DNA of 64,000 nucleotides from Amycolatopsis sp. WQ 127309 (lineage in GTDB: Bacteria > Actinomycetota > Actinomycetes > Mycobacteriales > Pseudonocardiaceae): the NCBI RefSeq assembly GCF_023023025.1, contig NZ_CP095481.1:8631001-8695000 (forward strand). The letters are read 5' to 3'. Both the position numbers and the translations under genes were made by a program. Shown piece by piece: positions 7,551 through 56,762 of the stretch. Position 1 is the stretch's first letter. Each line of letters opens with the position of its first letter. The notes beneath the pieces were generated by a model. The model was not told the origin of the DNA and searched no databases. It worked only from the letters and a program-made list of their open reading frames with translations.

Positions 7551-7760
7551 TCAGTTGTCCATGGCGTCGGCCAGGGACTTCGGGCGCATGTCCGTCCAGT
7601 TCGCTTCCACGTGGTCCAGGCACGCTTGGCGGGCGGCCGGGCCGAAAGTGACGTTCCAGCCGGCCGGGACGTCGACGGACTCGGGCCACAGGCTGTGCTG
7701 GTTCTCGGCGTTGACGAGGACCAGGTACGTGCCTTCGGGGTCTTCGAACGGGTTGGTCAC
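7551..7760 (-). CDS. MbtH-like NRPS accessory protein
   Basis: A 69-residue MbtH-family protein. The diagnostic conserved residues are present: NPFED at the N-terminus, NAENQHSLWPESVDVPAGW (about 18-36) and NWTDMRPKSL near the C-terminus. MbtH proteins bind adenylation domains and are needed for their folding or activity, so this one should serve the 6,030-residue NRPS upstream. The GTG start at 7760 has GAGGAGG at good distance. It follows the binding-protein gene after 11 bases, so the two are co-transcribed from the iron box near 8818. Confidence 0.93.
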   Translation of the reverse strand: MTNPFEDPEGTYLVLVNAENQHSLWPESVDVPAGWNVTFGPAARQACLDHVEANWTDMRPKSLADAMDN

Positions 7761-7771
7761 GGTGCGCCTCC

Positions 7772-8797
7772 TCAGGCGGTGATGTCGGTGCGGGCGCCCT
7801 TCACGACTTCGGCCAGCTTCTGGATGACCGGGGCCGCGAGCACCGGGTTGAACCGCGGCTCGGTCGACCAGTCGGCGAGCTGGCTCGCCTTGACCGCGGG
7901 CAGCTGCGCCCACGTCGGGATCGCCGCCAGCTGCTGGCGGGACAGGGCGAAGGTGCGGCTGTCGCTGAGGATCAGGTCGGCCGGGTACTTGCCGGCCTGC
8001 TCCCAGCTGAGCGTCTCGAAGTAGTCGTCCGCGCCGGCGCCGTTGATGATGTCCAGGCCCAGGTCGCGGTAGTACGCGAGGTCGGCGAAGAACTCCGGCT
8101 TGCAGACGTACAGGTTGTCCTTGTCGCTGGACACCACGAGCACCTTCAGGCCGGGCTTCGACTTGATCGCGGCCTTCAGGTCGTCGGACGCCTTCTGGAA
8201 GTCGTCCTTGCCCTTCTTGATCGCGTCGGAGTTCGCGTCGCCGCCGAGGGCCACGGCGAGCTGCTCGTAGCGTTCGATCACCTTCGGCAGCGTGACCTTG
8301 TACTCCGACAGCGCGACGATCGGCGCGATCGCCTGGACCTTGGGGCCGAGGTCGTCCTTCAGCACCCACAGGTCGGTCGGCTTGGTACCGGTGAGGCCGG
8401 TGACGACCAGGTCCGGCTTCAGCGCGGCGAACTTCTCCATGCTGAAGTCGTCCCACGCGTTGCCGATCGAGGTGACGGCGTTCAGGTCGATGTTGCCGGC
8501 CTGGATCTCCTTGGCGCCGTCGGCCGTCTTCTGCGGGCCGAAGACGCCGATCGGGCGGACGCCGTAGTCCCAGAGCGCGGCGGCCGAGCTGGCGTAGGCC
8601 ACGACGCGCGACGGGCGCTGGTCGCGCGCCGCCTTCTGGTTGCGGTCGTCGGTGAACTCCCACGGCCCGGAGGCGGCGGCCGCCGGCTTGTCGTCACCGC
8701 TGCCGCAGGCGGTGAGCGCCGCGGCCGCGGCGAGACCGCCGGTCCCGATCAGGAATCCACGCCGGGTAAGACCGGCACCGCCTTGAAACACCGACAT
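7772..8797 (-). CDS. Siderophore-binding lipoprotein of an ABC importer
   Basis: A 341-residue periplasmic-binding-protein-like lipoprotein (FepB/FhuD/CeuE type). The signal region has a twin-arginine motif (TRRGFL, residues 11-16) followed by a lipobox LTAC with the lipidated Cys at 31. The rest is the two-lobed fold joined by one long helix typical of ferric-siderophore receptors. It should capture the ferric complex outside the membrane for the FecCD-type permeases at 27520-29608. The ATG at 8797 has GAGAGG upstream; a reading from 8830 adds 11 residues and runs into the operator. Two iron-box-like sequences precede it, so it forms an iron-repressed unit with mbtH. Confidence 0.9.
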   Translation of the reverse strand: MSVFQGGAGLTRRGFLIGTGGLAAAAALTACGSGDDKPAAAASGPWEFTDDRNQKAARDQRPSRVVAYASSAAALWDYGVRPIGVFGPQKTADGAKEIQAGNIDLNAVTSIGNAWDDFSMEKFAALKPDLVVTGLTGTKPTDLWVLKDDLGPKVQAIAPIVALSEYKVTLPKVIERYEQLAVALGGDANSDAIKKGKDDFQKASDDLKAAIKSKPGLKVLVVSSDKDNLYVCKPEFFADLAYYRDLGLDIINGAGADDYFETLSWEQAGKYPADLILSDSRTFALSRQQLAAIPTWAQLPAVKASQLADWSTEPRFNPVLAAPVIQKLAEVVKGARTDITA

Positions 8798-8817
8798 GAG
8801 AACCTCTCGCCAAACCT

Positions 8818-8855
8818 TTAGGGTAGGCACACCTTATTTAGGCGAGCCTGTCTAA
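8818..8855 (-). promoter_or_regulatory. Two adjacent iron-box-like operators upstream of the binding-protein gene
   Basis: TTAGGGTAGGCACACCTTA (8818-8836) and TTAGGCGAGCCTGTCTAA (8838-8855, one base short of the consensus) lie back to back between panD and the binding-protein gene. Both resemble the DtxR-family box. The spacing allows cooperative binding. This gives the binding-protein/mbtH pair its own iron-controlled promoter. Confidence 0.72.
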
Positions 8856-8895: not shown

Positions 8896-9306
8896 TCACT
8901 TCCGACCGGACAGCTGGGCTTCCGCGCCAGGGACCGGCTCGGCCGGGTCGTGTCCCAGGTGGACCTGCCGGTTGCCGGCGTCGACGTGCACCACCCGCGG
9001 CCGGTGCCCGGCGCGCTCGGTCTCGTGGACCTGGGCGTAGGTGATGATGATGACCAGGTCACCCGGGTGCACCAGGTGCGCGGCCGCGCCGTTGATCCCG
9101 ATCACGCCGGTGCCGGGCTCGCCGGTGATCGCGTAGGTCTCCAGGCGGGCGCCGTTGGTGATGTCGACGATCTGGACCTGCTCGCCTTCGACGATGTCCG
9201 CGGCGGCCATCAGGTCCGCGTCGATGGTCAGGGAGCCGACGTAGTGCAGGTCGGCCTGGGTCACCGTGGCGCGGTGGATCTTGGCGTTCATCAGGGTGCG
9301 GTGCAT
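8896..9306 (-). CDS. panD: Aspartate 1-decarboxylase (pyruvoyl enzyme), NRPS-associated
   Basis: A 136-residue aspartate alpha-decarboxylase, which makes beta-alanine from L-aspartate. The self-cleavage site Gly-Ser is at residues 24-25 (HYVGSLTID), and the active-site motif [19 protein letters not shown] (about 70-88) is intact. The start overlaps the last 16 bases of the NRPS gene, so the two are translationally coupled. This placement, and a beta-alanine-type specificity code in NRPS module 4, argue that it feeds the siderophore assembly line rather than only pantothenate synthesis. That link is inference. A separate housekeeping panD elsewhere in the genome would be expected but cannot be seen here. 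Confidence 0.9.
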
Positions 9307-12300
9307 CGGTTTCCTCGTGTTTCGGTCAGCAGGGCGGCTAGCCCGGCCACGGTGGGGGTGCGGAAGAACTCGGCGATCGGGAGCTCGGTCCCGGTCCGTT
9401 CGGTGATCCGGTTGCGCAGGACCACCAGCAGCATCGAATGGCCGCCGAGGGCGAACAGGTCGTCGTCGGCACCGACCGTGCCGACGTCCAGGACCTCCGC
9501 GAACACCTCGCAGAGGGTCTTCTCCAACGGTGTCTCGGGAGCCCGGCCGCGCTGCTCGAACGCCGGCGCCGGCAGTGCGGCCTTGTCGAGCTTCCCGTTG
9601 GCGGTCACCGGAAACGCGTCGAGCGGCACGATCGCCGCGGGCACCATGTACGCCGGTAGCGAGCGGGCCACGAACTCCCGCAGCCGCGCCGGATCGGCGT
9701 GGCCCGGGGTGGTGTAGGCGACCAGCTGCTTCTCCCGGTCCTCGCGGACGATGACCAGGGCCTGGTCGACGTCGTCGTGCCGGGTCAGCGCCGTCTCGAT
9801 CTCGCCCGGCTCGATCCGGAAGCCTCGGACCTTCACCTGGTCGTCGGTGCGGCCGAGGTACTCGAGCTGGCCGTCCGGGCGCCAGCGCACCAGGTCGCCG
9901 GTGCGGTACATCCGCTCCCCCGGTGGCCCGAACGGGTCCGCGACGAACCGGTCCGCGGTGAGCGCGGGCCGGTCGTGGTAGCCGCGGGCGAGCCCGGCGC
10001 CGGCCAGGTACAGCTCGCCGGGCACGCCGGCCGGGACCGGGGTGAGCCCGCCGTCGAGGACGTAGGCCCGGGCGTTGTGCACCGGACGGCCGACCACCGG
10101 CCGCTCGCTGTCCGCGACCCGGCCGACCAGGGCGTCCACGGTGGCTTCCGTCGGGCCGTACAGGTTGTAGGCCTCGGTGCCCGGGAACGACCGCAGCTCC
10201 TCCCACAGCGACTGGGAAACGGCTTCACCACCGACGCCGACGACGCCCAGGGCGCACGAACCGTCCTCGACCACCCCGGCCGCCGCGAGCTGCGCGAAGT
10301 GCGACGGCGTCAGCTCGAGGAAGTCGAGCCCGCGCTCGCGCACCACTGCGGCGAGCCGGTCCGGGTCGCGGCGGGTGTCGTCGTCGACGACGTGCACCTC
10401 GTGGCCGTCCAGCATCCACAGCTGCGGCTGCCAGGACGCGTCGAAGAAGAACGCCCACGCGTGCCCGACCCGCAACCGCCGTCCGCCCGCCGCGGCGACC
10501 GCCGGGCGGTAGAGCGTCTCGCGGTGGCTGTGGAACAGGTTCACCAGCCCGGAGTGCGGGATGACGACGCCCTTGGGCTTGCCGGTCGAGCCGGAGGTGT
10601 AGAGCACGTACGCCGGGTTCGCCGGTGCCGGCGGGATCAGCTGAGCCGCACTGTCCACAGTGTCCTCAAGCAAGTCCTCGACGAACAACGCCCCCGGCAC
10701 CGGCGCGGCCAGCGCACGGCTGGTCAGGACCAGCGCCGCACCCGAGTCGGCGAGGACTGCCGCGATCCGGTCCGCCGGCTGGTCCGGGTCCACCGGCAGG
10801 TACGCCGCGCCCGACTTGAACACGCCGAAGATCGCCTCGACGACCGCCGCCGAGCGCGGCAGCACCAGGGCCACCACCCGCTCGGGCCCGGCGCCGTGCG
10901 CCGTCAGCCAGCGAGCCAGCCGGTCGGTCCGCGCGGCGAACTCCGCGAAGGTGCTGCTCGACCGCGCGTCGCTCAGCGCGGTCGCGTCCGGGGTCGCCGC
11001 CACCTGCGCGGCCAGCCGGTCGACGACCGTCGGCGCCGCCGTGGTCACCGGCGCGCCGGTGCCCCACTCGCCGAGGATCCGTTGCCGCTCAAGCGGTTCC
11101 AGGACGTCGATGCGGCTCAGCGGCCGGTCCGGGTCGGCGACGACGGCGCTCATCAGCCGCACCAGGCGCTCGGTGAGCGTCCGGGCGGTCGGCTCGTCGA
11201 ACAGGTCGAGGCTGAACTCGAGGTCACCCTCGATGCCGTCGGGCGTCTCGACCAGGTCGAAGGACAGGTCGAACTTCGCCTGTCGCAGCCCGGTGTCGCG
11301 GTAGGCCGCGTCGAGCCCGAGCAGCTTTTCCGGCTCGGAACCCGAATGGTAGACCGCGAGCATGACCTGGAACAGCGGGTGCCGGGCCAGGGACCGGGCC
11401 GGGTTGAGCAGCTCGACGAGGTGCTCGAACGGCAGGTCCTGGTGGGCGTACGCGGCCAGGTCGGCCTCGCGGACCCGGGCGAGCAGCTCGCGGAACGTCG
11501 GGTCGCCCTCGGTGTCCGTGCGCAGCACGAGCGTGTTGACGAAGAACCCGGCCAGGTCCTCCAGGGCGTGGTCCATCCGGCCGGCCACCGGGGTGCCGAG
11601 CGGGATGTCGGTGCCCGCGCCGAGCCGGGTCAGCAACGCGGCCAGCGCCGCCTGCAGGACCATGAACGTGCTGGTGTCGCTGCCGCGGGCGAGGTCGCGC
11701 AGGCCGCGGTGCACCTCGCCGGACACGGTGAACGGCACCGCCGCGCCGCGGTTGGTCGAGCGCGCCGGGCGGGGCCGGTCCGCCGGGAGGGCCAGCTCGT
11801 CCGGGATGCCGGCAAGGGTGTCGCGCCAGAACGCCGCTTGCCGGCCGAGCAGGCTGTCCGGGTCGTCGGCGCGGCCGAACATCTCCCGCTGCCACAGCGT
11901 GTAGTCGGCGTACTGCACCGGCAACGGCGTCCACTGTGGACGCTCACCGCGCCGGCGGGCGGCGTAGGCGGTGTCGAGGTCGCGCTTCAGCGGCGGGAGT
12001 GACCAGCCGTCGCCCGCGATGTGGTGCACCAGCAGCACGAACACGTGCCGCTCCGGGCCGGCGGAAACGAGCGTGGCCCGCACCGGGATCTCGGCGTCGA
12101 GGGTGAAGCAGTACGACGCCGCCGCGACGACGCGTTCGTCGAGGTCGCCTGCCGTTTCCGTGACCAGCACCGGCCGAGCGCGGTCGTCGCCGACGGCGAG
12201 GACGACCTGGCTGGGCGTGCCGTGGTCCTCGACCAGGATCGTCCGGAGGACTTCATGCCGGGCGACGACGTCGCCGAGGGCCGCCCGCAGCGCGTCGGCG

Positions 12301-15300
12301 TCGACCGGACCGGTCAGCTCCCACGCCCACGGGATGTTGTACGTCGCGGACAGGCCGTCCAGGCGGTCGAGGAACCACAGACGCTGCTGGGCGAACGACA
12401 GCGGCAGCACCTCGGGCCGGTCCGCCGGGATCAGCGCGGGACGGCTCTGCCGGCCGGGGTCGAGGAGCTGAGCCAGGCGGGCCGGGGTCGGCGCGTCGAA
12501 CACCGCCCGGATCGGGACCTCGACGCCCAGCAGCGCACGGATCCGGCTGACCAGCCGTGTCGCCAGCAGGGAGTGGCCGCCGAGGGTGAAGAACCCGTCG
12601 TCCGGGCCGACGGCCGGGACGCCGAGGACGTCGGCGAAGAGATCGCCCAGCGCCTGCTCGGCCGGGGTCCGCGCGACCCGGCCCGAGGTCCGGACCTCGG
12701 GGTCGGGCAGCGCGGCACGGTCGAGCTTGCCGTTGGCGTTCACGGGCAGCTCCGGCAGCACGACGATCGCCGACGGCACCAGGTACTCCGGCAGCCGCGC
12801 GGTCAACGATGCGCGCAGCGCGGCCGGGTCACCGGCCGGTGCGACATAGGCGATCAACCGGTTCTCACGCGCGATCACGACCGCGCGAGCGACCGACGGG
12901 TCGGCCGTCAGCACGGCTTCGACCTCACCCGGTTCGACGCGGAAGCCGCGGATCTTGATCTGCTGGTCGGCGCGGCCGAGGAACTCCAGCGCGCCGTCCG
13001 GACGGCGCCGGACCAGGTCGCCGGTGCGGTACATCCGCTCCCCCGGCTCGAACGGCGAAGCCACGAACCGCTCGGCGGTGAGCGCCGGCCGGCCGAGGTA
13101 GCCCCGGGCGAGCCCGGCCCCGGCCAGGTACAGCTCGCCCCGCACGCCCGGCGGCACCGGGCGCAGCGCGGCGTCGAGGACGTACGCGCGGGTGTTCGCG
13201 ACGGGCCGTCCGATCGCCACGGGCCCGCAGACCTGCGCCAGGCTGTCCCCCGCGACTTCCGAGCAGCCGTACAGGTTCACCAGCTTCGCCGACGGCCACC
13301 GCCGGGCCACCTTCTCGGCCAGCGCCGCGGAAAGCGGCTCACCACTGGTGATCCACGTCGTCACCGAGTCGACTGCGGTGTCTTCCACGTCTTCCACGAA
13401 GGTGTCGAGCAGGCTGGGCACGACGGTCAGCACCTGGGCGCCGCTGCTGCGCACCAGGTCGGCGAGGGCGTGCGGGTCGGTGGCCGTCGCGTCGTCGGCG
13501 AGGACCACCGGGTCGCCCGCGACGAGCCCGCCGAGCAGCTCGGTCGATCCGTCGATGAACGTCAACGCGCTCTTGGCCACGCGCACGCCCGGAGCGAGAT
13601 CCCGGCCCCAGTGCAGCCGGTTGGCCAGCGCCAGCTGGGTGCCCGCGACCGCCTTCGGCCGGCCGGTCGAGCCGGACGTGAAGATCACGTACGCCGGGTT
13701 CTCCGGGCTGATCTCCGGCCACGCGGCCGGTTCCGCCGCAGTCTCGTCGGGCCGCACCAGGCGATCGCCGAAGCTTTCGTGCGCGACGACCAGGTGCGGC
13801 GCGGCGTCGGTGAGCATCAGGTCGACGCGTTCGGCCGGGTGGTTCAGGTCCAGCGGGAGGTAGGCGGCACCGGTCTTGAGCACCGCGACGAGCGCGGTCA
13901 CCAGCTCGACCGACCGCGGCAGCGCCACCGCGACCACCTTCTCCGGGCCCGCGCCCCGAGCGAGGAGCGCGCGAGCCAGCGTCGTCGCCCGACCGTCCAG
14001 TTCCGCGTACGTCAAGCGGTCCGGGCCGAACACCAGCGCCGTGGCGTCCGGGGTGCGAGCCACCTGCGCGGCGAACAGCTCCGCGACCGTCTCCGCGGGC
14101 AGCGGAGTCGCGGGATCGGCAGCGAGCTGCTCGTGCTCGGCGTCGGTGAGGAGGTCGACCGCGCCGATCCGGGTGTCCGGGTCGGCGACGGCCGCGCACA
14201 GCAACGCGCGGAGCCGCCCCAGGATCGCTTCGACGCTCGCGCGGTCGAAGACGTCGCTGTTGTACTCGGCGGTGCCGCGGATGCCGGTCCGGTTGCCGGG
14301 CCGCTCGCCGACGAAGAGCGTCAGGTCGGCGCGAGCGGTGCCGGTGCGGACCGGCTCCTCCTCGACGGTCAGGCCCGGCAGGCCGAGGTCGGCGACGGCG
14401 TTGTTCTGCCAGGCCAGCATCGTCTGGAACAGCGGCGCGTACGCCAGCGAACGGACCGGGTTGAGCGCCTCCACCAGGCGTTCGAACGGGACGTCCTGGT
14501 GCGCGTACGCGTCCAAGCTGCGGTCGCGCACCCGGGCGACCAGATCGCGAAACGACGGGTCGCCGTCGGTGCCGACGCGCAGGACCAGGGTGTTGACGAA
14601 GAACCCGACGAGGTCGTCGAGGGCCTGGTCGGTGCGCCCGGCGATGGACGTGCCGATCGGGACGTCGGTGCCCGCGCCGAGCCGGGTCAGGACGGCGGTG
14701 AGGCCGGCGTGCACGACCATGAACACGCTGGCGCCGCACGAACGGGCGAGCTCGACGAGTCCACCGTGGAGGTCGGCGTCCCAGCCGAACGAGAACTGTT
14801 CGCCCTGGTAGGACGTTTCCGCCGGGTGCGGCCGGTCGGTCGGCAGCTCGATGCGTTCCGGCAGGTCCGCGAGGGTCTCGCGCCAGTAGGCCAGCTGCGG
14901 TTCGATGACCTGCTCGCCGAGGACGTCGCGCTGCCACAGCGTGTAGTCCGCGTACTGCACCGGCAACGGCGTCTGCTCGGGACGTTCGCCGGCGCGGCGG
15001 GCGGTGTAGGCCGTGGCGAGGTCGCGCCACAGCGGCGCGGTCGACCAGCCGTCCGAGGCGATGTGGTGGAACACCAGCGCCAGGACGTGTTCACGGGCGC
15101 CCAGGCGCAGCAGCTCCGCGCGCAACGGGACTTCCGACTCCAGCTCGAACACCGTGCGGGCCACGTCGGACACCGCGTCGGCGAGCGTCGCCTCGGTGAC
15201 GTCGCGGGTGTGCAGCGGGATCTCGACGTCGTCGAGGATCAGCTGGCGGGCTTCGCCGTCGATCTCCGGGAAGACGGTCCGCAGGGCTTCGTGCCGCTCG

Positions 15301-18300
15301 ACGACGTCGGACAGCGCGGCCCGCAGTGCGGTGACGTCGAGGTCGCCGGTGAGGCGGACCGCGGTCGGCATGTTGTACGTCGCCGACGGGCCTTCCAGCC
15401 GGTGCAGGAACCACAGCCGCTGCTGGGCGAACGACAGCGGCAACGCGTCGGGCCGCGGGTCGGCGCGCACGAGGGCGGGCCGGGCGACCGACGAGTCCAG
15501 TGTGGACAGCAGCGCGGCGAGCCCGGCCACGGTCGGCGTCTCGAACACCGACCGCACCTGCAGCTCGACGCCGAACACCGCGCGCAGCCGCGCGACCAGG
15601 CGCGTCGCCATCAGCGAATGGCCGCCGAGGGCGAAGAAGTCGTCGTCGACGCCGATCGACGCAGCGTCGAGGACTTCGGCGAAGAGGCCGCAGAGGACTT
15701 CTTCGGCCGGGGTGCGCGGGGCGCGTCCGGTCGTGGCTTCCTGCTTGTCCGGGCTCGGCAGGGCACGGCGGTCGAGCTTGCCGGAGGCGAGCAGCGGCAG
15801 CCGGTCCAGCACGACGAACGCCGAGGGCACCATGTACTGCGGCAGCCGGTCGCGGACGTGCGCCCGCAACGCCGTCACCAGCGCACTCGTGTCGCGCCGG
15901 CCCGCCGGGTGGTTGCCCAGGGTGCCGAGCGCGGCCCGCACCGAGCGGGCGCGGTGGATCCGGACCGGGTCGCCGGTGGTGAACACGACCTCCAGCGCGC
16001 CCTCCTGCGCCGTGACCGTCGAGTACACCCGGTAGCCCAGGCGCGAGCCCAGTTCCTGCAACGTCTCGGGGTCCACTCCGGACGGCTCACCGTCCAAAGC
16101 GGACAACGCCGCGTCCGCGTCGCCTGCGGCCAGCGCGGCGACGGCAGCCAGTTCGCCGGACAGGCGCGCGTTCGGCACGCCGGTGACGCGCAGCCGCGCG
16201 GGGTGCTCGGCCAGCAGCCGCTCCAGCTCGGCGACGGACTCGAACGTGACGACCTGCTCGTCGACCGGAGCCGGCTTCGGCGCCTTCCGCAGGACGACGT
16301 CGTAGCGGTGCCGGGTCAGCTCGTTGTGCGCGTGGCCGCGCTTGAACCACAGGTCGACGTCGTCGAAGCCGGCCAGCTCGCGGGCCACCGCGGTGAAGAA
16401 GTCGGGGTCGAGGACGAGTTCGCCGTCACGAGCGACGGCCTGGTCGACCGCGGCGGCACTCCGGCGGCCGTGCCGCAGCTCGGTCGCCGTGCGGAACGCC
16501 CGCAGCGAGCGCAGGTTCCGGATGTCGCCGAGGAAGAGCACGCCGCCGGGCCGGACGCGCGCGGCGGCGGTCCGGATGACCTCGGCGAGGTAGTCGACGC
16601 TCGGGAAGTACTGCGCGACGGAGTTGACGATCACGGTGTCGAACGGCTCGTCCGGCAGCTCGCCGAGGTCGTGCGCGGGCCGGGCCGCGACGTGCACCTT
16701 GCCCGCCAGGTCGGGGCGTCCGGCCAGCTCGCGGCGCAGGTTGGCGATCGCCTTCTCGGACAGGTCGACGCCCCAGTACGCCTCGGCGTCCGGCGCGATC
16801 CGGGACAGGATGAGCCCGGACCCGACGCCGATCTCGAGGACCCGCTTCGGCCGCAGCGCCTGGATGCGCTCGATCGTCGCCGCGTGCCACTCGCGCATCT
16901 CGCCGAGGGGGATCTCCGAGCCGTCGTAGCTGGAGTTCCACCCCGTGAAGTTCTCCTCGAAACCACCGGACGCGGCGTCGTCGAAGACGTTCTCGTGCAG
17001 TTCACGCCACTCGCCGACGTGGTCCAGCTCCGCTTCTTCGTCGCGGCTCGCGGCCGGGACGGCGTAGGCGATGAGCCGCCCGTCCTGGGCGAGCACGACG
17101 GACTGCGCGACGGCCGGGTGCTCGGTGATGACGGCTTCGATCTCGCCCGGTTCGATGCGGTAGCCGCGGATCTTGACCTGGTCGTCGGCCCGGCCCAGGA
17201 AGACGAGACGGCCGTCCGGCAGCCATTTCACCAGGTCACCGGTGCGGTAGAGCCGTCCGCCGGACCCGAACGGGTCGGCGACGAACCGCTCCGACGTCAG
17301 CCCGGCCCGCCCGAGGTAGCCACGGGCCAGGCCGGAGCCGGCGAGGTACAGCTCCCCCACCACGCCCGGCGGGACCGGCCGCAGTCCGGCGTCGAGGACG
17401 TACGCGCGGGTCCCGGGGTCGGGGATGCCGATGGGCACGACGGTCGCGTCGGCGAGTTCGACCGGGTCGCTCTCGCCGAGCGTCGAGTTCGTGGTCGCCT
17501 CCGTCGGGCCGTAGGCGTTGAACATCCGCCGTCCCGGCGCCCAGCGCCGGATCAGCTCCGGCGACACGCGCTCGGTGCCCGCGAGCAGGACGCTGTCACG
17601 CGGCAGGTCGCAGTCCGCCGGCATCGCGTCGAGCAGCGCGGGCGGGAGGATCATGAAGTCCGCGCCGTGCTCGTGGGCGTATTCGGTCAGCGCGGGCCCG
17701 GCGACCCGGCGCTCGGCCGGGACCACGATCAGCCGGCCGCCGGAGAGCAGGCCGAGGCAGAGGTCCCAGAACGCGACGTCGAAGCTCGGCGACGCGAACT
17801 GCAGGACGCGGCTGTGCGGCCCGATCCCGAACCGCTCCTTCTGGGTCGCGACGAGCTTCGCGACGCCGGAGTGCTGCAGCACCACGCCCTTGGGACGGCC
17901 GGACGAGCCGGACGTGTAGATCACGTACGCCGCGTTCTCCGGCTTGACCGGCACGGCCGGGTCCACTGTGGACATCGTGGGCAGGTCTTCCAAGAGCACG
18001 CGCGGCACGTCGGCGGGCAGCTTGCCGTCGATCTCCCGCGTGGTCACCACGCACACCGGCTTGGCGTCGGAGACCATGAACGCGATCCGGTCGCCCGGGT
18101 AGTCGACGTCGACCGGCAGGTAGGCGGCGCCGGCCTTGAGCACGGCCAGCTCGGCGACGATCATCTCGACCGACCGTGGCACGGCCAGCGCGACGACCTT
18201 CTCGAGCCCGGCCCCGCGCTCGATCAGCAGGTGGGCGAGCTGGTTGGCTCGCGCGTCGAGTTCGGCGTAGGTCAGCTCGACGTCCTCGAAGACGAGCGCC

Positions 18301-21300
18301 ACGGCGTCCGGAGCCTCGTCTACACGCTGGGCGAAGAGACCGGGGAACGTCTCCGTTCCCGCCGGTTCAAGGGACCCGGCCCAGCGGGTCAGCACCAGAT
18401 CGCGTTCGTCACCTTCGAGGAGGTCCAGGGCGCCGACCGCGCGGTCGGGCTCGGCCAGGGCCGCGCGCAGGAGGACTTCGAGACGGCGCAGGATCGCGTC
18501 GGCACCCGGGTGGTCGAAGACGTCGGCGTTGAACTCCAGGACGCCGTCGATCCCGGCTTCGCGCTCGGTCAGCGAAATCGAGAGGTCGAACTTCGACGTC
18601 CCGGTGGTCACCGGGATCTCGGTGACGGTCAGCCCGGGCAGGGTGACTTCGGCGCGGGTGTTGTTCTGCCCGGCGATCATCACCTGGAACAGCGGGTGGT
18701 ACGACAGCGACCGCGCCGGGTTGAGGATCTCGACCAGGCGCTCGAACGGGACGTCCTGGTGAGCGTACGCGTCGAGGTTGCGCTCGCGGACGCGGCCGAC
18801 CAGGTCGCGGAACGTCGGCTCGCCCGCGGTGTCGACGCGCAGCACCAGCGTGTTGACGAAGAACCCCACGAGGTCGTCGAGGGCCTGGTCGGTGCGCCCG
18901 GCGATGGGTGAGCCGATCGGGACGTCCGGGCCCGCGCCCAGCCGTGTCAGCAACGCGGCGAGGGCCGCGTGCACGACCATGAACACGCTGGCGCCGCACT
19001 CGCGGGCCACAGTGGACAGTCCGGTGTGGAGGTCGGCGTCCCAGGTGAAGGTGTGCAGTTCACCGCGGAAGGTCGCGGTGGACGGGTGCGGCCGGTCGAG
19101 GGGCAGCTCGATGCGGTCGGGCAGGCCGTCGAGGGCCTCGCGCCAGTAGTCGAGCTGGGCGGTGAGGACGCTGTCCGGGTCGTCCTCGCGGCCGAGCAGG
19201 TTCTGTTGCCACAGCGTGTAGTCCGCGTACTGCACCGGCAGCGGCGTCCATTGGGGACGCCCGCCGGCGCGGCGGGCGGTGTAGGCCGTGGCGAGGTCAC
19301 GCCACAGGGGGGCCATCGACCAGCCGTCGGAGGCGATGTGGTGGAACACGAGCGCGAGCACGTGCTCGCCTTCGGCCAGGCGCAGCAGTTCCGCGCGCAT
19401 CGGCGCGTGCTGTTCGAGGTCGAACGAGCCCCGGACGAGGCCGGTCAGGGCGCTGTCGAGGTCGGTGACCTGACGGACCGGCAGGTCGACCGCGGACGGC
19501 GGGAGGATGTCCTGGTAGGGCACGCCGTCATGCTGCGGGAAGCGGGTCCGCAGCGCCTCGTGGCGCTCGACCACGTCGGACAGTGCCTCCCGCAGAGCGT
19601 CGACGTCCAGGTCGCCGTCGAGGCGCATGATCAGCGGCACGTTGTAGGTGGCCGACGGGCCTTCGAGGTGGTGCAGGAACCACAGCCGCTGCTGGGCACC
19701 CGACAGCGGCACCAGGGCCGGCCGCTGCACCGGGACCAGCGGTGGCCGGGCGGGTCCGCTGCCGGCGGAGATCAGCTCGGCCAGGCCCGCGGCGGTCGGC
19801 GTCTCGAACACCGACCGGACTTCCAGTTCGGCGTTCAGGGTCGTGCGGATGCGCGCGATGAGCCGGGTGGCCAGCAGCGAGTGGCCGCCGAGGGTGAAGA
19901 AGCTGTCGTCCGGGCCGACGCGCGGCAGGCCGAGGACGTCGGCGAACAGCTCACACAGCTGTCGCTCGACGGGCGTGCGCGGCGCGCGGTCGGACGTCGG
20001 TGCGACCGGGTCGGGTGAGGGCAGGGCGCGGCGGTCGAGCTTGCCGTTGGCCGTCACCGGGAGCGCGTCGAGCACGACGATCGCCGACGGCACCATGTGC
20101 TCCGGCAGGCTCTCGGCGGCCAGCGCGCGGAGGTCGGCGGACAGCGTGCTGATCCGGCGGAAGCGGCCGGGGTTGCCGGTGTAGGCCAGCAGCGGTTCCG
20201 GTCCGGGCCGGAAGGCACCGGCGGCCGAGCCGGTCGTGAACACGACGTCGACCGAGCCGTCGCCTTCGGCCGACCAGGTGACGGCCGTGGTGTAGCCGTG
20301 GGCGTCACCCAGGTCGTACCAGTCCTGCGGGTTGACGCCGTCGATGGTGCGCCCGTTCGGCACGCCGTTGATCCGGACACCACCATCGAGCACGACCTCG
20401 TCCGCTGAGGACACATCGGTGCCCCAGGTCAGGACCTCAACCGTCGGCGCTTCGACGGGTGACGTGTGGAGGACGACGTCGTAGCGGAACTGGGTGAGTT
20501 CGTTGACCCCACGCCCACGCTTGACGCGGATGTCCGCCGTGACGCCCTCCAGCCCGGCGAAGAACTCCGGTGCGACAAGGAGTTCCTTCTCCCGCAACAA
20601 GGCCTGCTCGACGTCTCCCCCGCGCTGCCGGGCGACCTCGGTGTGGAACGCCCGGACCTGCCGCAGGTCGCGGACGTCGCCGACGAACACGGTCCCGCCC
20701 GGAGCGAGGAGGCTGACGGCCTTCTCCAGAACATCCAGGAGATACGTCCCGCTGGGGAAGTACTGGACGACCGAGTTGAGCACGATCGTGTCGAAGTAGC
20801 CGGAAGGCAGGCCGGAGACGTCGGCGGCGTCACCGGTGCGCAGCTCGACGTAGTCCGCGAGCGCGGGGTCGGCCGCGACCCGGTGACCGAGGGACGCGAT
20901 GACCTCGGCGGAGAAGTCCGTGCCCCAGTAGGACTCGCAGTGCGGGGCCAGCTCGGTGAGCAGCAGGCCGGTGCCGACGCCGAGTTCCAGCACGCGCCGC
21001 GGCCGCGTCTCGCGGATCCGCGTGACGATGGCGTCGCGCCACTCCCGCATCTCGTCCCGCGGGATCGGCTCGCCGGTGTAGCTGGAGTTCCAGCCTTCGA
21101 AGTCGTCGGTCGCGCCGGAGTACATCGAGTCGTACAGCTCGCGCCACTCGCCGACCTGCTCGGTCTCGTCCGTGGCCGACGCGGGGGTTTCGGCGGGCAC
21201 GACGTACCCGACCAGGCGGACGTCGCCCGGCCGGTCCTCGCGGGCGACGACGACGGCGTGGGCGACGTCGTCGTGCGCGGCGAGCGTCGCGGCGATCTCG

Positions 21301-24300
21301 CCCGGTTCGACGCGGAAGCCGCGGATCTTGATCTGCTCGTCGCCGCGGCCGAGGAACTCAAGGACACCGTCGGCGCGGAACCGGGCGACGTCACCGGTGC
21401 GGTACATCCGCTCCCCCGGCTCGAACGGCGAGGCGACGAACCGCTCCGCGCTCAACCCCGGCCGCCCGAGGTAACCGCGGGCGAGCTGGACTCCGGCGAG
21501 GTACAGCTCACCGGGCGTACCCGGCGGGACCGGTCGCAGCGCGGCGTCGAGGACGTACGTGCGGGTGTTCCACACCGGACGTCCGATCGGGACGGTCGCT
21601 TCGCCGGGCGAGGTGTGCCAGGACGTGACGTCGACCGAGGCTTCGGTGGGGCCGTAGAGGTTGTGCAGCTCGGCGTCCAGCACCTGCCCGAACCGCGCGA
21701 CGGCCTCGGGCGGCAGCGCCTCACCACTGCACAGGACCCGGCGCAGGCTCGTGCACTCCGCCGCGGTGGGCTCCTGGAGAAACACCTGCAGCATCGACGG
21801 GACGAAGTGGACGGTCGTGACGTCGTGCTCGCGGATCAGCCGCGCGAGGTAGGCCGGGTCCTTGTGGCCGTCGGGCCGGGCCACGACCTCGGTGGCGCCG
21901 GTGAGCAGCGGCCAGAGGAACTCCCAGACCGAGACGTCGAAGCTGGACGGCGTCTTCTGCAGCACCCGGTCGTCGCCGGTCAGGCCGTATTCGTGCTGCA
22001 TCCACAGCAGGCGGTTGACGATGCCCGCGTGCGGCACGACAACACCCTTGGGCCGGCCCGTCGAGCCGGAGGTGTAGATGACGTAGGCCGGGTTTTCCGG
22101 CCGGAGCACCACGTCCGGCGCCTTGGCCGGGAACCCGGCGGCCGTCACGGGCTCGTCCAGCAGCAGCGCGCCGGGGACAGCGGTCTCCGTCGTGGCCAGC
22201 ACCAGGGTCGGCTGGGCGTCTTCGAGCATGAAGGCGATCCGCTCGGCCGGGTAGCCGGGGTCGAGCGGCAGGTAGGCGGCGCCCGCCTTGAGCACGGCGA
22301 GGATGGCCGTGACCAGGTGCGTCGACCGCGGGAGTGCGAGGGCGACCACCTTCTCGGGTCCCGCACCGCGCGCGACGAGGGCCTGGGCGAGGCGGTTCGA
22401 CGCGGCGTCCAGCTCGGCGTAGGTGAGCCGGTCGTCCTCGAAGACCAGGGCCGGGTGGTCCGGCGTCCGCGCGACCTGCGCGGCGAACAACTCGGGCACG
22501 GTGACCGCGGGGACGTCCTCGACGGCGCCGGACCAGACGGCATCCAGGCCGTCACGCTCGGCCTCGGTGAGCACGTCGAGGGAGCCGAGGCGGCGGTCCG
22601 GGGCCGAGACCACCTGGCGCAGCAGGACTTCCAGACGCGCCAGGAGCGCGTCCACAGTGGAGCGGTCGAAGACCTCGGCGTTGAACTCGGCCTGGCCGGT
22701 GATGCCGTCGGCGTGCTCGGTCAGGGAGAACCAGAGGTCGAACTTCGCGGTGCCGGTGCCGACGGGCTGCTCGGTCACCGTCAGCCCGGGCAGCTCGACG
22801 CCGGAGCCGGGGGTGTTCTGCCAGGCCAGCATGGTCTGGAACAGCGGGTGGTGCGCCAGCGACCGTGCCGGGTTCAGCGCTTCGACGAGCCGTTCGAAGG
22901 GGACGTCCTGGTGGGCGTACGCGTCGAGGCTGCGCTCCCGGACGCGCGCGACGAGGTCGCGGAACGTCGGGTCGCCGCCGGTGTCGACGCGCAGGACGAG
23001 GGTGTTGACGAAGAAGCCGACGAGGTCGTCGAGGGCCTGGTCGGACCGGCCGGCGATGGGCGTGCCGATCGGGATGTCGGTGCCGCCGCCGAGCCGGGAC
23101 AGCAGCGCGGTCAGGCCCGCGTGAACGACCATGAACGGGCTGGCGCCGCACGCGCGCGCGAGGTCGCCGAGCCCGGCCTGGAGGCCGGCGTCCCAGGCGA
23201 AGGTGAAGAACCCGCCGCGGTAGGCGGACACCGCCGGGTGCGGCCGGTCGAGCGGGAGGCTGATCCGCTCGGGCAGGTCGCGCAGGGTCGCGCGCCAGTA
23301 GCCGAGCTGGGCGGTCTCCTCGGTGGCGAGGAGTTCGCGTTGCCAGAGGGTGTAGTCGGCGTACTGGACCGGCAGCGGCGTCCACTGTGGATCTTCGCCC
23401 TGCCGGCGGGCGCCGTACGCCGTGGCGATGTCGCGCCACAGCGGCGACAACGACCAGCCGTCGGCGGCGATGTGGTGGATGACGAGCACGAGGACGTGCC
23501 GGCGCGGGTCGATCGTCAGCAACTCGGCGCGGACGGGCACCCCGGCGCCGAGGTCGAAGACCTCGCGCACGAGAGCGTCCACAGTGGAGTCCACCGCGGG
23601 CTCGGCGACCGTCCGCACTACCAGGTCGACCTCGCCGTCGGGCAGAACGTGCTGGTAGGCCACGCCGTCCGCGACGGGGAACACCGTCCGCAGCGCTTCG
23701 TGGCGGCCGAGGACGTCGTGCAACGCGGTCCGCAGCGCCTCGACGTCCAGCTCACCGGACAGCCGCATGACAAGCGGGACGTTGTAGGTCGCCGACCCGC
23801 CTTCGAGGCCGTGCAGGAACCACAGCCGCTGCTGCGCGAACGACAGCGGGAGCCGCTCCGGCCGTTCCTGGAAGCGTTCGAGCGGACGCCGTTCGGTGCC
23901 CGACGCGGCACCGGCCAGGAGGTCCGCGAGGGCGGCCACGGTCGGCGCGTCGAAGACCGCGCGCACCGGGATGTCGGCGCCGACGGCCGCGCGGATGCGC
24001 TGGATCAGCCGCGTGGCCATCAGGGAATGCCCGCCGAGGGCGAAGAAGTCGTCGTCCGGACCGACCCGCGGCACGCCGAGGACGTCGGCGAACAGCTCGC
24101 ACAGCAGCTGCTCGACGGGGTTGCGGGGCGCACGGCCCGGCCCGGCGGTGAACCGCTCCGGCGCCGGGAGGGCCTTGCGGTCGAGCTTGCCCGAGGCCAG
24201 CACGGGCAGCTTGTCGAGCACGACGAACGCCGTGGGCACCATGTACTGCGGCAGCCGGTCCCGCACGTGCGACCGCAGCGACGCGACCAGCGCGCCGGTC

Positions 24301-27300
24301 TCGCGCCGGGCGGCCGGGTTGTTGGCGTACGACGCCGGGGCACCCGTGCTCCGCACCGGGCGGTAGGCCGCGTCCGGCGCCGACCGGCTGAAGACGGCCT
24401 CCAGCTCCCCGGCCGCGGCAGGCGTGACCGCGACGCAGTAGCCGGCCCGGTCGGCGAGCCGGTGCAGGTCCTCCGGGTCGACGCCGTCACGCACGTCCAG
24501 GGCCCACACCGCCGCCGGGTCACCTTCGTCGAGCGCGCGAACCGCAGCGAGTTCGCCGGACAACCGCGCGTCCGGCACGCCGGTGACGCGCAGCCGCTCC
24601 GGCGTCTCGGCGGACAGGAACCCTTCCACCGCGGCGAGATCGCCGAACGCGATGACCTGCTCGTCGGCGGGCGACGGCCGTGGTGCCTTGCGCAGGACGA
24701 CGTCGTAGCGGTGCCGGGTCAGCTCGTTGTGCGCGTCGCCGCGCTTGACCCACAGGTCGACGTCGAAGCCGTCAAGGCTCCGGGCGAGGGCCGGGAAGAA
24801 GTCGGGATCGAGGACGAGTTCGCCTTCGCGGGCGATCGCCTGGTCGACGGCGGCGACGTCACCACGGTCGTGGCGCAGCTCGACAGCGGTCCGGAACGCG
24901 CGCAGGGAGCGGAGGTTGCGGATGTCGCCGAGGAAGATCGTGCCACCCGGGGCGAGGAGCCCGGCGGCGGTCCGGACGACCTCGGCGAGGTAGTCGGCGC
25001 TCGGGAAGTACTGGGCGACCGAGTTGACGATCACGGTGTCGAACGGCTCGTCCGGCAGCTCGCCGAGGTCGTGCGCGGGCCGCGCGGCGAGGTGGACCTT
25101 GCCCGCCAGCTCCGGCATCGCGGCGACCTCGCGCCGCACGTTCTCGACGGCGCTCTCGGAAAGGTCGACGCCCCAGTAGGTTTCGGCGTCCGGGGCGATC
25201 CGGGAGAGGATGAGCCCGCTGCCGACGCCGATCTCGAGAACCCGCTTCGGCCACAGCGCGCGGATGCGCTCGACGGTCGCCGCGTGCCACTCGCGCATCT
25301 CGTCGAGGGGGATGTCGGAGCCGTCGTAGCTGGAGTTCCAGCCGGCGAAGTTCTCCTCGATGCCGGTGGAGCCGGCGAGCATCTCCTCGTGGACGTCGTG
25401 CCACTCGGCGACGTGGCCCTGCTCGGCCGCGCGGTCCGGGACCGGCACGGCGTAGGCGTACAGGTGTCCGTCCTGCGCGACGACGACGGACTGGGCGACG
25501 CGGGGATGCTCGGCCAGCACGGATTCGATCTCGCCGAGTTCGATGCGGTAGCCACGGATCTTGACCTGGTCGTCGGCGCGGCCCAGGAACACGAGCCGGC
25601 CGTCCGGGAGCCATTTCACCAGGTCACCGGTGCGGTAGAGCCGTCCACCCGAGCCGAACGGGTCGGCCACGAACCGCTCCGACGTCAGCCCGGCCCGCCC
25701 GAGGTAGCCACGCGCCAGGCCGGAGCCGGCGAGGTACAGCTCCCCCACGACGCCGACCGGGACCGGCGCGAGGAACGCGTCGAGCACGTACGCGCGGGTG
25801 CCGGGGTCCGGGACGCCGATCGGGACGGCCGAGCCCGGCGTGATCTCCGGGTCGCAGAGGCCGAGCGTCGAGTTGGTCGTGGCCTCGGTCGGGCCGTAGG
25901 CGTTGAACATCCGCCGGCCCGGCGCCCACCGCCGGACCAGCTCGGGTGAAACGCGCTCGGTGCCGGCGAGCAGGACGCTGTCGCGCGGCAGGTCGCAGTC
26001 CTCGGGGAACTCGGCGAGCAGCGCGGGCGGCAGGATCATGAAGTCGACGCCGTGCGCGTTCGCGTAGTCGGCCAGCTCCGGGCCGGGGACGCGCCGCTCG
26101 GCCGGGACGACCACCAGGCGTCCGCCCGACAGCAGCCCGAGGCACAGGTCCCAGAAGGCGACGTCGAAACTCGGCGACGCGAACTGCAGCACCCGGCTCC
26201 GCGGACCGATCCCGAACCGCTGGGTCTGGGTCGCGACCAGCTTCGCGACACCCGCGTGGGACACGACGACGCCCTTGGGGCGCCCGGTGGAGCCGGACGT
26301 GTAGATGACGTAGGCCGCGTTGGCCGGGACGATCGCCGCGCCCGGGTCCGTCGCCGGCGCGTCGGCCAGGAACGTCTCGTCGAGCAGGAGGACGTCGCCG
26401 TCGAAGCGGTCGGCCAGCTCGCTCGTGGTCACCACGCACACCGGGCCGGCGTCGGCGACCATGAACGTGATCCGGTCGACCGGGTAGTCCTGGTCCAGCG
26501 GCAGGTAGGCGGCGCCGGCCTTGAGCACGGCCAGCTCCGCCACGATCATCTCGACCGACCGCGGCACGGCCAGCGCGATCACCCGCTCCGGCCCGGCGCC
26601 ACGGCCAATGAGGACGTGCGCGAGCCGGTTCGCCCGCGCGTCGAGTTCGGCGTAGGTGATCTCGACGTCCTCCAAGACCAGCGCGACCGAGTCCGGCGCT
26701 TCGCGGACGCGGGCGGCGAACAGCTCCGGCAGCGTCGCCAGCGGCGTGTCGAGGTCGGTGTCGTTCCACTCGTCGAGCATCCGGCGCAGTTCCGGATCCG
26801 GCACCAGGTCGAGTCGCGCGACCGGCCACTGTGGACGTTCCAGCGCGGCGACGAGGAGGTGCTCGAGGTGGCCGAGCATCCGGTCCACAGTGGACTCGTC
26901 GAGGACGTCGGCGCGGTAGTGCACACCACCGGTGGTCAGGTTCAGGTCGAGCGGCAGGTCCGTCTCGGCGCCGAAGCCGACGTTGACGAGCACCGATCCC
27001 CCACGACCGGGCTCGGGCTGCAGCTCGGCGACGAGGTCACCGAACGGAACCCGGTGCGCCAACGCTGCTTCACGCGCCGCGCGCACACGCTCGACCACCT
27101 CGGCGAACCCGGGCGAACCGCCCAGGTCGACCCGCACCGGCACCAGCGCGCCGATCCCGACGACCACGTCCGAGGTGCCCGCGTACCGGGACAGCAGCAC
27201 CGTGAACGCCGCGAGCAACGTCAACTCGTCGACCGGCGGGGACGACCAGGGCAGCCGAGCCGGAACGGGCTCGGCCGGGTACGGGCGGTCGACCGGCAGC

Positions 27301-27383
27301 GGCAGTTCCTTCGGCGCCGACGCGAGGCGATCACGCCAGAACCCGAGGTCCGCGACCTGCTGCACAGCGTCACCGTTGCTCAC
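9291..27383 (-). CDS. Five-module siderophore NRPS (A-MT-T / C-A-MT-T / C-A-MT-T / C-A-T / C-A-T)
   Basis: A 6,030-residue nonribosomal peptide synthetase. Approximate residue positions: partial C 1-200 (no HHxxxDG); A1 211-640, MT1 640-900 inserted before the end of A1, T1 1100-1150; C2 1180-1620 (HHIAADG), A2 1630-2060, MT2 2070-2310, T2 2480-2530; C3 (HHIASDG) 2560-3010, A3 3020-3440, MT3 3450-3700, T3 3900-3950; C4 3980-4420, A4 4430-4880, T4 4920-4960; C5 4990-5440, A5 5450-5920, T5 5960-6010. There is no E or TE domain. By eye, A2 reads DVWHLSLVDK (Ser), A4 IDTVISLGDK (beta-Ala-like, no Asp235), A5 resembles Orn codes, and A1 and A3 share DVWILAATNK, unassigned. MT domains carry [13 protein letters not shown] SAM motifs. 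The GTG at 27383 is chosen because GGGAGG precedes it. Confidence 0.93.
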
Positions 27384-27477: not shown

Positions 27478-27496
27478 ATCGGTTAGCCTTACCTAA
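27478..27496 (+). promoter_or_regulatory. Iron box of the siderophore importer operon
   Basis: ATCGGTTAGCCTTACCTAA agrees with the 19-bp consensus at about 15 positions by hand alignment. It lies 23 bases upstream of the first permease start and 31 bases from the NRPS-side box, so one divergent region controls both synthesis and uptake. Confidence 0.75.
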
Positions 27497-27519
27497 AATT
27501 GGTACCAGTCGGAGGTGCG

Positions 27520-28557
27520 GTGCGAACAGACCCCGGAGGTATCGCTCTCACGCGACGCCCGCCACACACGGGCCGCGCGATCGGATTCCTCGCCGCCCTC
27601 GCGGTCCTCGTTCTGCTGTGCCTGCTGAGCGTCTGGCTGGGTTCCAAGGAGATCTCGTTCGGCGCCGTCTGGCAGGTGCTGTGGCACAACGACGGCTCCG
27701 CCGACGCCGTGATCATCCACAGTGTCCGGCTGCCGCGGACGCTCCTCGCGGTGCTGGTGGGCGCCGGTCTCGGGCTCGCCGGCTGCGTGATGCAGGCGCT
27801 GACCCGCAACCCGCTGGCCGACCCGGGCCTGCTCGGCGTCAGCGCCGGGGCCGCGTTCGCCATCGTGTTCTCGATCACCGTGCTCGGCGTCAGCTCGGCC
27901 TACGGTTACATCTGGTTCGCCTTCGCCGGTGCGCTGGCCGCGACGACCGTCGTCTACTTCCTCGGCACCCGCGGCCGCGCCGGGTCGAGCCCGGTCAAGC
28001 TCGCGCTCGCCGGGGCCGCCGTCACGGCGTTGCTCGCCTCGTTCACCAGCGCGATGGTGCTGTCGGACCCGGTGGCGCTCAACCGCTACCGCTTCTGGTC
28101 GGCGGGCTCGCTCGCCGGCGTCGACAGCAGCGCGCTGCTGCAGGTCCTGCCGTTCCTCGTGATCGGCGTGGTGCTGGCGATCGCGAGCGGCCCGGCGCTG
28201 AACAGCCTCGCCCTCGGGGACGACGTCGCGATCGCGCTGGGCCGCAAGCTCGGCCCGCTGCGGCTGCGCGGCGCACTGGCGATCACCCTGCTGACCGGCG
28301 CGGCCGTCGCCGTCGCCGGGCCGATCGTGTTCCTCGGCCTGATCGTCCCGCACGCGGTGCGGTTCGTCATCGGCCCGGACCACCGCTGGCTGCTGCCCTA
28401 CACCGCGGTGCTCGCGCCGTGCCTGCTGCTGGCCGCCGACATCCTCGGCCGGATCCTGGCGCGGCCCAGCGAGATCCGGGCCGGCGTGATCGTCGCGTTC
28501 CTCGGCGCGCCGTTCTTCATCTACCTGGTTCGCCGGCGCAAGCTCGTGGAGTCCTGA
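27520..28557 (+). CDS. FecCD-family ferric-siderophore permease, first subunit
   Basis: A 345-residue integral membrane protein with about nine to ten helices. The family signature RLPRTLLAVLVGAGLGLAG at about residues 70-90 and NPLADPGLLGVSAGAAFAIV just after are typical of FepD/FhuB-type permeases. It pairs with the next gene to form the importer channel. I chose the GTG at 27520 with GGAGG just upstream. A TTG at 27499 would add seven residues and lies almost on the iron box. Only one base separates its stop from the next ATG. Role: uptake of the ferric form of the locus siderophore, inferred from context. Confidence 0.88.
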   Translation: MRTDPGGIALTRRPPHTGRAIGFLAALAVLVLLCLLSVWLGSKEISFGAVWQVLWHNDGSADAVIIHSVRLPRTLLAVLVGAGLGLAGCVMQALTRNPLADPGLLGVSAGAAFAIVFSITVLGVSSAYGYIWFAFAGALAATTVVYFLGTRGRAGSSPVKLALAGAAVTALLASFTSAMVLSDPVALNRYRFWSAGSLAGVDSSALLQVLPFLVIGVVLAIASGPALNSLALGDDVAIALGRKLGPLRLRGALAITLLTGAAVAVAGPIVFLGLIVPHAVRFVIGPDHRWLLPYTAVLAPCLLLAADILGRILARPSEIRAGVIVAFLGAPFFIYLVRRRKLVES

Positions 28558-28558
28558 C

Positions 28559-29608: not shown

Positions 29609-29611
29609 CAC

Positions 29612-55881: not shown

Positions 55882-56072
55882 GGCGGCCCCTCCGGGGCCG
55901 CGCCGCTATCGGCCGGCACGCGCGGGGCCCGCCTCCGGCACCCACGCGACCGGCCGGCAGCTGACCGGGGACCGCAGCTCAAGAAGAAGAGTATGTACTC
56001 GCCGGACGGGCAGGTCTCCGAGATGGCCGAGTTGAGCGCGGCGGTTGCGTCCGTGTGCGGCCAAACGGCATC
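55879..56072 (+). repeat. 194-bp repeat R2, joined to the truncated integrase
   Basis: A near-identical copy of 53100-53294. It abuts the break in the integrase gene, suggesting that a recombination event at this sequence deleted the body of the second element. Confidence 0.85.
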
Positions 56073-56100
56073 CCACTACAAGTAGAGGACGAGGTGGCGC

Positions 56101-56613: not shown

Positions 56614-56762
56614 TTACCCTCTCCAAGTCGCGCAAACATCCAAGAAGGCTAGCACAGCCCTCAGTACAGTCGTGACCGGCGTCACAGGCATCCAATTGAT
56701 CATTGGCGAGATAGAGTGAGAGACCGAACAAGACCTGCCAGAGCAACAAGATACAATCCACC

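What the first reader, a model, noticed from the sequence alone, without database searches (positions are those of the whole stretch)
8896..27383. NRPS module with a beta-alanine code next to a dedicated aspartate decarboxylase
Module 4's adenylation domain lacks the near-universal Asp235: its core reads FIDGSTELL, and the hand-derived code is IDTVISLGDK, close to the published beta-alanine pattern VDxVISxxDK. The very next gene, overlapping by 16 bases, is an intact aspartate 1-decarboxylase, which makes beta-alanine. Two independent signs therefore predict a beta-alanine residue in the siderophore and an on-site precursor supply.
Basis: partly seen in the sequence, partly recalled or inferred. 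Interest (0 to 1): 0.85.

Follow-up and report, generated by a model that had tools for sequence, protein, structure and literature searches.

The report
Siderophore assembly line with beta-alanine supply
A soil bacterium's iron-scavenging peptide assembly line appears to insert beta-alanine at its fourth position and carries, directly behind it, its own gene for making that building block; relatives of this gene pair are found in several families of actinobacteria.

Summary
Module 4 of the five-module NRPS lacks Asp235 and has Asp one place later; aligned to GrsA its code is IDTTISLGD(K), not IDTVISLGDK. An intact PanD-type aspartate decarboxylase overlaps the NRPS end by 16 nt.

The beta-alanine reading is well supported. 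The same code sits at the beta-Ala position of a madurastatin-type line in Actinomadura madurae. A PanD lies on the same contig within 37 kb for 63 of 79 related loci. The genome has another PanD in a panC-panD-coaX operon, so the window copy is a paralogue; cluster-borne PanDs form one clade. In Kibdelosporangium G147 a sister line has a serine core at module 4, and the decarboxylase is gone but for a probable short remnant between the same neighbours.

The kind is not new: madurastatin and cahuitamycin clusters are published with a beta-Ala module and an enzyme proposed to make beta-Ala. This is a new predicted hydroxamate member in Amycolatopsis, held by 28 of 80 genomes. Nothing was shown biochemically.

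The parts
8896..9306 (-). PanD-type aspartate 1-decarboxylase (pyruvoyl enzyme), cluster-borne paralogue
   Evidence: PF02261 E 7.3e-50; key residues present; solved PanDs matched; second copy in panC-panD-coaX operon elsewhere; tree
9291..27383 (-). Five-module NRPS: partial C-A1-MT-T / C-A2-MT-T / C-A3-MT-T / C-A4-T / C-A5-T, no thioesterase seen
12645..14072 (-). Adenylation domain A4, code IDTTISLGD + K, predicted beta-alanine
13233..13580 (-). A4 core used as query (FIDGSTELL ... [11 protein letters not shown])
7772..8830 (-). Siderophore-binding lipoprotein (Peripla_BP_2)
7551..7760 (-). MbtH-like protein
27478..27496 (-). Iron-box-like palindrome in the divergent promoter, 3 mismatches to TTAGGTTAGGCTAACCTAA
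   Evidence: none in 100 shuffles; consensus recalled
27499..30424 (+). FecCD, FecCD and ATPase of an iron-siderophore importer (27499-28557, 28559-29608, 29612-30424)
31114..32433 (-). L-ornithine/lysine N-monooxygenase
   Evidence: PF13434 E 5.5e-109
32549..33493 (+). Formyltransferase (N- and C-terminal domains)
2466..5884 (+). Two ABC exporter half-transporters (2466-4136 and within 2642-5884)
   Evidence: relatives of the first lie close to the NRPS end in several related loci

Best explanation
Iron-starvation siderophore cluster. PanD (8896-9306) cleaves itself at Gly24-Ser25 and turns aspartate into beta-alanine and CO2. A4 adenylates that beta-alanine, with Asp236 instead of Asp235 holding the amino group, loads it on T4, and C4/C5 join it between two N5-hydroxyornithines. 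The line would read hOrn(N-Me)-Ser(N-Me)-hOrn(N-Me)-beta-Ala-hOrn, with formylation by the formyltransferase and release, in the absence of a thioesterase, by cyclisation of the last hydroxyornithine. Shown by sequence: domain order, codes, gene order, PanD integrity, linkage, the A4-core exchange between sister lines. Inferred: substrate, pocket role of Asp236, formylation sites, release, function of each MT.
For: Code anchored on GrsA. A. madurae L127 has C-A(Gly code)-T-C-A(IDTTISLGD)-T-C-A(hOrn code)-MT-T-C-T, the layout described for Mds37/ReneL, whose product has beta-Ala between Gly and N-Me-hOrn. Streptomyces loci hold PanD, IDTT, DAQEGG and Ser modules, the same set as CahF, CahD, CahC and CahB. 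Linked PanD: 50 of 79 in held DNA, 13 more on the same contig 11.5-37 kb away. In the window's family 17 of 21 within 25 kb (10 of 21 within the 20 kb held) versus 0 of 18 NRPS loci without the code, whose PanDs lie on other contigs or more than 700 kb off. 28 of 28 Amycolatopsis orthologues have the code and 27 of 28 the PanD, the 28th being at a contig end. 70 of 98 PanD rows form one clade, 98/90 support: all 65 cluster-borne rows and 5 unplaced ones, none of the 25 other copies. PanD and A-domain distances correlate, r 0.84, 0 of 999 permutations as high. Kibdelosporangium G147: same line but Ser core at module 4 and PanD apparently reduced to a short remnant. Monooxygenase, formyltransferase, importer, MbtH, iron box.
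Against: No enzyme assay or product. Positions 235 and 278 differ from the quoted beta-Ala code. 16 of 79 loci have no PanD shown on the same contig; five of those genomes have no PanD match at all (L137, L138, L146, L149, L151). L051, L052, L053 and L055 in the family have none linked. PanD paralogues also stand near NRPS-like A domains without this code. The published layouts were compared by reading passages, not by aligning their sequences.
Confidence: 0.88

Rival explanations
1. A4 activates another beta- or omega-amino acid, such as beta-aminoisobutyrate or 4-aminobutyrate, alone or besides beta-alanine.
For: Kasichelins carry beta-aminoisobutyrate or beta-Ala at one position from one NRPS (PMC12305651, passages read), so beta-amino acid A domains can be relaxed.
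Against: PanD makes beta-Ala from Asp (recalled); in kasichelin a CdeT-like dehydrogenase is linked to supply and the A domain was predicted as Ile-like, unlike this code; a madurastatin-type line with this code has beta-Ala in the product.
Confidence: 0.07
2. The PanD is an extra pantothenate/CoA supply gene whose place behind the NRPS is incidental.
For: PanD paralogues lie near A domains lacking the code in 6 of 10 further places examined; G040 has only the cluster copy.
Against: Overlap with the NRPS, one clade of cluster PanDs, code-PanD linkage, and PanD loss where module 4 is Ser.
Confidence: 0.04
3. A4 activates an ordinary alpha-amino acid through an unusual pocket, or is inactive.
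For: Only that no assay exists, and that one phmmer alignment can pair the Asp with Asp235 by a gap.
Against: Conservation of the code in several actinobacterial families and its place in lines whose products hold beta-Ala.
Confidence: 0.01

Closest known systems
Madurastatin clusters (mad, rene, mds), Actinomadura
   Same: beta-Ala module followed by hydroxyornithine, cluster-borne aspartate 1-decarboxylase (mds23), N-methylated hOrn, no thioesterase reported (PMC10779116 and PMC10951976, passages read)
   Different: Salicylate-oxazoline start, Gly before beta-Ala, last module lacks A; in A. madurae PanD lies 18 kb away, not overlapping the NRPS
Cahuitamycin cluster (cah), Streptomyces gandocaensis
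   Same: CahD predicted for beta-Ala, CahF proposed to form it from Asp, Gln-like CahC code at the hydroxyornithine-derived residue (PMC4757757, passages read)
   Different: Beta-Ala is C-terminal, NRPS split over four genes, salicylate start; I did not see the gene order in the text
Albachelin / albisporachelin / amychelin, Amycolatopsis
   Same: Cyclised C-terminal hydroxyornithine, formyl-hydroxyornithine, Ser (PMC6024995, passages read)
   Different: Ser is said there to be the only other amino acid; the window line has a beta-Ala code and PanD
Exochelin MS, mycobacteria
   Same: NMR spin systems of beta-Ala, Thr and ornithine (PMC5343307, passages read); L140 has codes of hfOrn - IDTLISSGD - hOrn - Thr type with PanD 11.5 kb away; residue order of exochelin recalled
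   Different: Different scaffold and code variant
Kasichelins, Streptomyces
   Same: beta-Ala or BAIBA linker to a C-terminal hOrn lactam (PMC12305651, passages read)
   Different: Different proposed supply gene and A-domain prediction

Membership tests
PanD, pyruvoyl-dependent aspartate 1-decarboxylase | PF02261 over nearly full length | tested here: met
   1-113 of 115 positions, 168 bits
PanD, pyruvoyl-dependent aspartate 1-decarboxylase | Gly24-Ser25 self-cleavage site and active-site residues | tested here: met
   K9, H11, Y22, G24, S25, R54, T57, Y58, N72 present; positions recalled
PanD, pyruvoyl-dependent aspartate 1-decarboxylase | Decarboxylates aspartate | not testable with these tools
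   needs assay
Beta-alanine-activating NRPS A domain | Asp at 236 instead of 235 | tested here: met
   and one of two LgrA alignments
Beta-alanine-activating NRPS A domain | Match to the quoted code VDxVISxxDK | tested here: inconclusive
Beta-alanine-activating NRPS A domain | Same code at a known beta-Ala position | tested here: met
   A. madurae line with the layout described for madurastatin
Beta-alanine-activating NRPS A domain | Beta-Ala-dependent exchange | not testable with these tools
   needs assay
Siderophore cluster with beta-Ala module and own PanD (madurastatin/cahuitamycin kind) | Linked PanD paralogue besides a housekeeping panD | tested here: met
Siderophore cluster with beta-Ala module and own PanD (madurastatin/cahuitamycin kind) | Hydroxyornithine supply, siderophore uptake and iron control genes or sites | tested here: met
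   (by sequence only)
Madurastatin cluster proper | Cy domain / phenyloxazoline start in the line and Gly before beta-Ala | tested here: not met
   first domain is a partial C, the four full C domains carry HHxxxD, no Gly code; a separate starter gene was not sought
Albachelin-type cluster | Ser as the only non-ornithine residue | tested here: not met
   A4 code is not a Ser code

The most novel reading that the evidence does not exclude
A-core and panD form a co-inherited beta-alanine cassette that entered several unrelated siderophore lines of actinobacteria, and it can be undone: in Kibdelosporangium G147 the module-4 core was overwritten by a module-2 serine core, probably the line's own, and the now useless panD collapsed to a remnant, so that NRPS substrate choice and precursor gene evolve as one unit.
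Probability: 0.6. Interest if true: 0.6.

Novelty: new member of a known kind. Interest (0 to 1): 0.5.

Why it matters
It predicts an undescribed beta-Ala hydroxamate siderophore in 28 of the 80 Amycolatopsis genomes searched, supplies a beta-Ala code variant (IDTTISLGDK) tied to a known product type, and offers a matched natural pair (beta-Ala + panD versus Ser + probable panD remnant, most of the rest of the line 80-97% alike) that shows where nature cuts an A domain to change a substrate.

Tried and rejected
Literal search for the code in print: VDWVISLADK and six code stems gave 0 papers, so the published pattern could not be cited from the library. Searches for decarboxylase or panD with siderophore terms gave one and 13 papers, seen as listings, none of them evidently on this. 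A first pairing of A and PanD sequences lost 27 rows to a too narrow regular expression; it was redone on the code and kept all 65. The listing FDWEGGLVD / FDWNLGLIN for A5-type domains is an alignment artefact of a one-residue indel; read by eye they are DAQEGGLVD and DMENLGLIN. I considered that PanD beside an NRPS is by itself diagnostic and rejected it: 6 of 10 further PanD sites have A domains without the code nearby. In the shuffle test the two pieces of the G147 remnant scored only just above or equal to the best of 300 shuffles (31 against 25 and 28; 24 against 22 and 24, same stretch tested twice), so the remnant rests on its place between the same neighbours and on both ends matching, not on score alone. 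No structure was predicted.

That moved the linked loci from 62 to 63 of 79 (L144 added) and gave the PanD places for all 18 control loci; I corrected the code tally to 65 of 98 and added the gapped LgrA alignment.
Full report
WHAT IS THERE. The window lies in a single 11.13 Mb contig of the genus Amycolatopsis: a genome that the tool calls the same genus, G141, has contig C62 of 259493 bases, the length of the Amycolatopsis sp. CA-126428 record. On the minus strand an NRPS of about 6030 residues ends at 9291; it has five A domains, four full condensation domains with HHxxxD, a partial one at the N-terminus, methyltransferase domains in modules 1-3 and no thioesterase that I saw (Pfam was run on the N-terminal half only, the rest was laid out with motifs and BLAST). 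A PanD-type aspartate decarboxylase follows with a 16-nt overlap, then a siderophore-binding protein and an MbtH protein. Divergently lie two FecCD permeases and an ATPase; an ornithine monooxygenase and a formyltransferase are near. An iron-box-like site stands at 27478-27496, with none in 100 shuffles.

THE CODE. I anchored nine positions on GrsA (1amu). A1 and A3 read DVWILGATN, A2 DVWHLSLVD (Ser), A4 IDTTISLGD, A5 DAQEGGLVD after allowing for a one-residue indel. The Lys of the A10 motif is present in all five. One of two phmmer alignments to LgrA pairs the A4 Asp with Asp235 through a gap; the other and MAFFT do not. Substrate names for A1, A3 and A5 are recalled from related siderophore lines; for the DAQEGG type the cahuitamycin paper describes the CahC domain as Gln-like at the hydroxyornithine-derived residue.

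WHY BETA-ALANINE. (i) A scan of named genomes (87 relatives found, the best 80 kept, 79 distinct loci). In Actinomadura madurae (L127) the line is C-A(DILQLGMIW)-T-C-A(IDTTISLGD)-T-C-A(DMENLG)-MT-T-C-T. The madurastatin papers describe four modules, Gly, beta-Ala, N-methylated hOrn, and in rene and mds a last module without A and TE, with an aspartate 1-decarboxylase in the mds cluster and beta-Ala in the isolated compounds (passages read; the module assignments there are predictions, and one earlier paper had given the last module of mad an A domain). (ii) 23 loci, nearly all Streptomyces, have PanD upstream of the IDTT gene, in most followed by DAQEGG and Ser, the same set as CahF, CahD, CahC and CahB (passages read; gene order there not seen). 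(iii) A Mycolicibacterium locus (L140) reads DINYWGGIG - IDTLISSGD - DMENLG - DFWNVGMVH, the residue order of exochelin MS as I recall it; a paper reports beta-Ala, Thr and ornithine signals in that compound (passages read). These are matches of layout and code; I could not align the published proteins themselves.

LINKAGE. In the window's family, of 150 genomes searched (only 10 candidate domains scored per genome), I examined 21 loci with this code type: the window, L037-L055 and L068. PanD lies directly behind the NRPS in 10, on the same contig 13-25 kb away in 7, and is not linked in 4 (L051, L052, L053 on other contigs, L055 far off). As control I took 18 further NRPS hits without the code down the list: 0 had PanD in the 20 kb held, and none of the PanDs of those genomes lies on the same contig within 700 kb. 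Among the 79 named loci, 50 have PanD in the held DNA. L144's genome has only this one PanD, so that copy may be its housekeeping one. For 16 no linkage was shown: in 11 PanD is on another contig, often of fragmented assemblies, and in 5 (L137, L138, L146, L149, L151) the genome has none. Some of the 21 and the 79 are the same genomes. In Amycolatopsis, 28 of 80 genomes have the orthologous line at 86% identity or more including the window; 28 of 28 have IDTTISLGD and 27 of 28 the PanD directly behind, the other ending at a contig edge.

DEDICATED? The same genome has a second PanD in a panC-panD-coaX operon (panC and coaX named from their sequence by eye). A tree of 98 different PanDs puts 70 rows, all 65 cluster-borne ones plus 5 of uncertain contig, in one clade with 98/90 support; outside it lie all 25 rows labelled housekeeping and 3 uncertain ones. 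Only L001 was checked for panC-coaX; the other 24 bear the label because they are copies away from such a line or top hits. The alignment is short and the bootstrap had not settled. PanD and A-domain distances over 65 pairs correlate with r = 0.84, 0 of 999 permutations as high; shared species history contributes to this.

A NATURAL SWAP. Its congener G147 (L056) has the same line and exporter but a Ser code in module 4 and no PanD there. The two NRPSs are mostly 80-97% identical per 40-residue bin, with some bins at 65-77%, falling to 50-65% before the A domain and 27-50% over the A4 core, then returning to 72% and more. For comparison L042 and L043, both beta-Ala but of different genera, keep 82, 85, 75 and 55% over the same core bins, with 40% in the bin before. 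The G147 module-4 core is 92% identical to the line's own module-2 Ser core, its best match among 95 Ser fragments apart from a second copy of the same locus; the likeness stops abruptly at motif A8. Other lines' module-2 cores follow at 89% and less, so copying from the own module 2 is likely but a module-2 core of a near relative is not excluded. Between the NRPS stop and the exporter G147 keeps sequence that matches both ends of the K. persicum panD with the middle missing. The pieces alone are barely above shuffles; their place and order make the case. If right, beta-Ala came first in this lineage and panD decayed once Ser was used. Two more Ser-type lines of the genus (L226, L227) have no PanD and no remnant detected. 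G147 keeps two PanDs elsewhere.

AGAINST. Further PanD paralogues, 56-71% identical to the window's, lie near A domains of other codes in 6 of 10 places (L248, L249, L251, L253, L256, L257; L254 holds one doubtful A-like match that I did not count), so adjacency alone proves little; two of these ten (those of L256 and L257) were in the tree and fell outside the siderophore clade. Five genomes have this code type, or its VDWVISLAD cousin, without any PanD, so beta-Ala would come from elsewhere or the substrate differs there. One Kibdelosporangium pair (L054, L068) shows PanDs 98% alike but A domains only 53% identical, perhaps because different modules were compared.

NOVELTY. The pairing of a beta-Ala module with a cluster-borne decarboxylase is published for madurastatins, and a beta-Ala-forming enzyme is proposed for cahuitamycin. 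In the library I found no paper on a beta-Ala siderophore from Amycolatopsis (25 papers, 20 listed, listing seen; passages of PMC6024995, say that the known Amycolatopsis siderophores of 2018 have Ser as the only other residue). The library holds only open-licence papers. I therefore file this as a new member of a known kind; the swap with the panD remnant is the part that a specialist might not expect, and I searched only once for A-domain recombination in general (listing seen), so I cannot say that it is unreported.

Noticed in passing
window 26789-27383: The NRPS starts with only the C-terminal part of a condensation domain, without HHxxxD; the iron box just upstream suggests this is the true start and not a frameshift.
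   Followed up: partly
window A1-A3 (residues 240-3930 of the NRPS as translated from 27479): Methyltransferase domains sit in all of modules 1-3, also in the Ser module; modules 1 and 3 are 73% identical, up to 93% in parts.
   Followed up: no
L248, L249, L251, L253, L256, L257: Further PanD paralogues lie near A domains of other codes, so PanD recruitment to biosynthetic clusters may be wider than beta-Ala modules.
   Followed up: partly
L131 and L148: Two beta-Ala-type A domains in one locus (Peterkaempfera griseoplana; a Rhodococcus MAG).
   Followed up: no
   Followed up: no
L137, L138, L146, L149: Lines of Roseibium, Microvirga and Chelatococcus with IDTT(I/V)SFGD codes; none of the four genomes has a PanD match.
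   Followed up: partly
window 56001-60000: G+C falls to 50-56% where most of the window is near 70%, suggesting foreign DNA.
   Followed up: no
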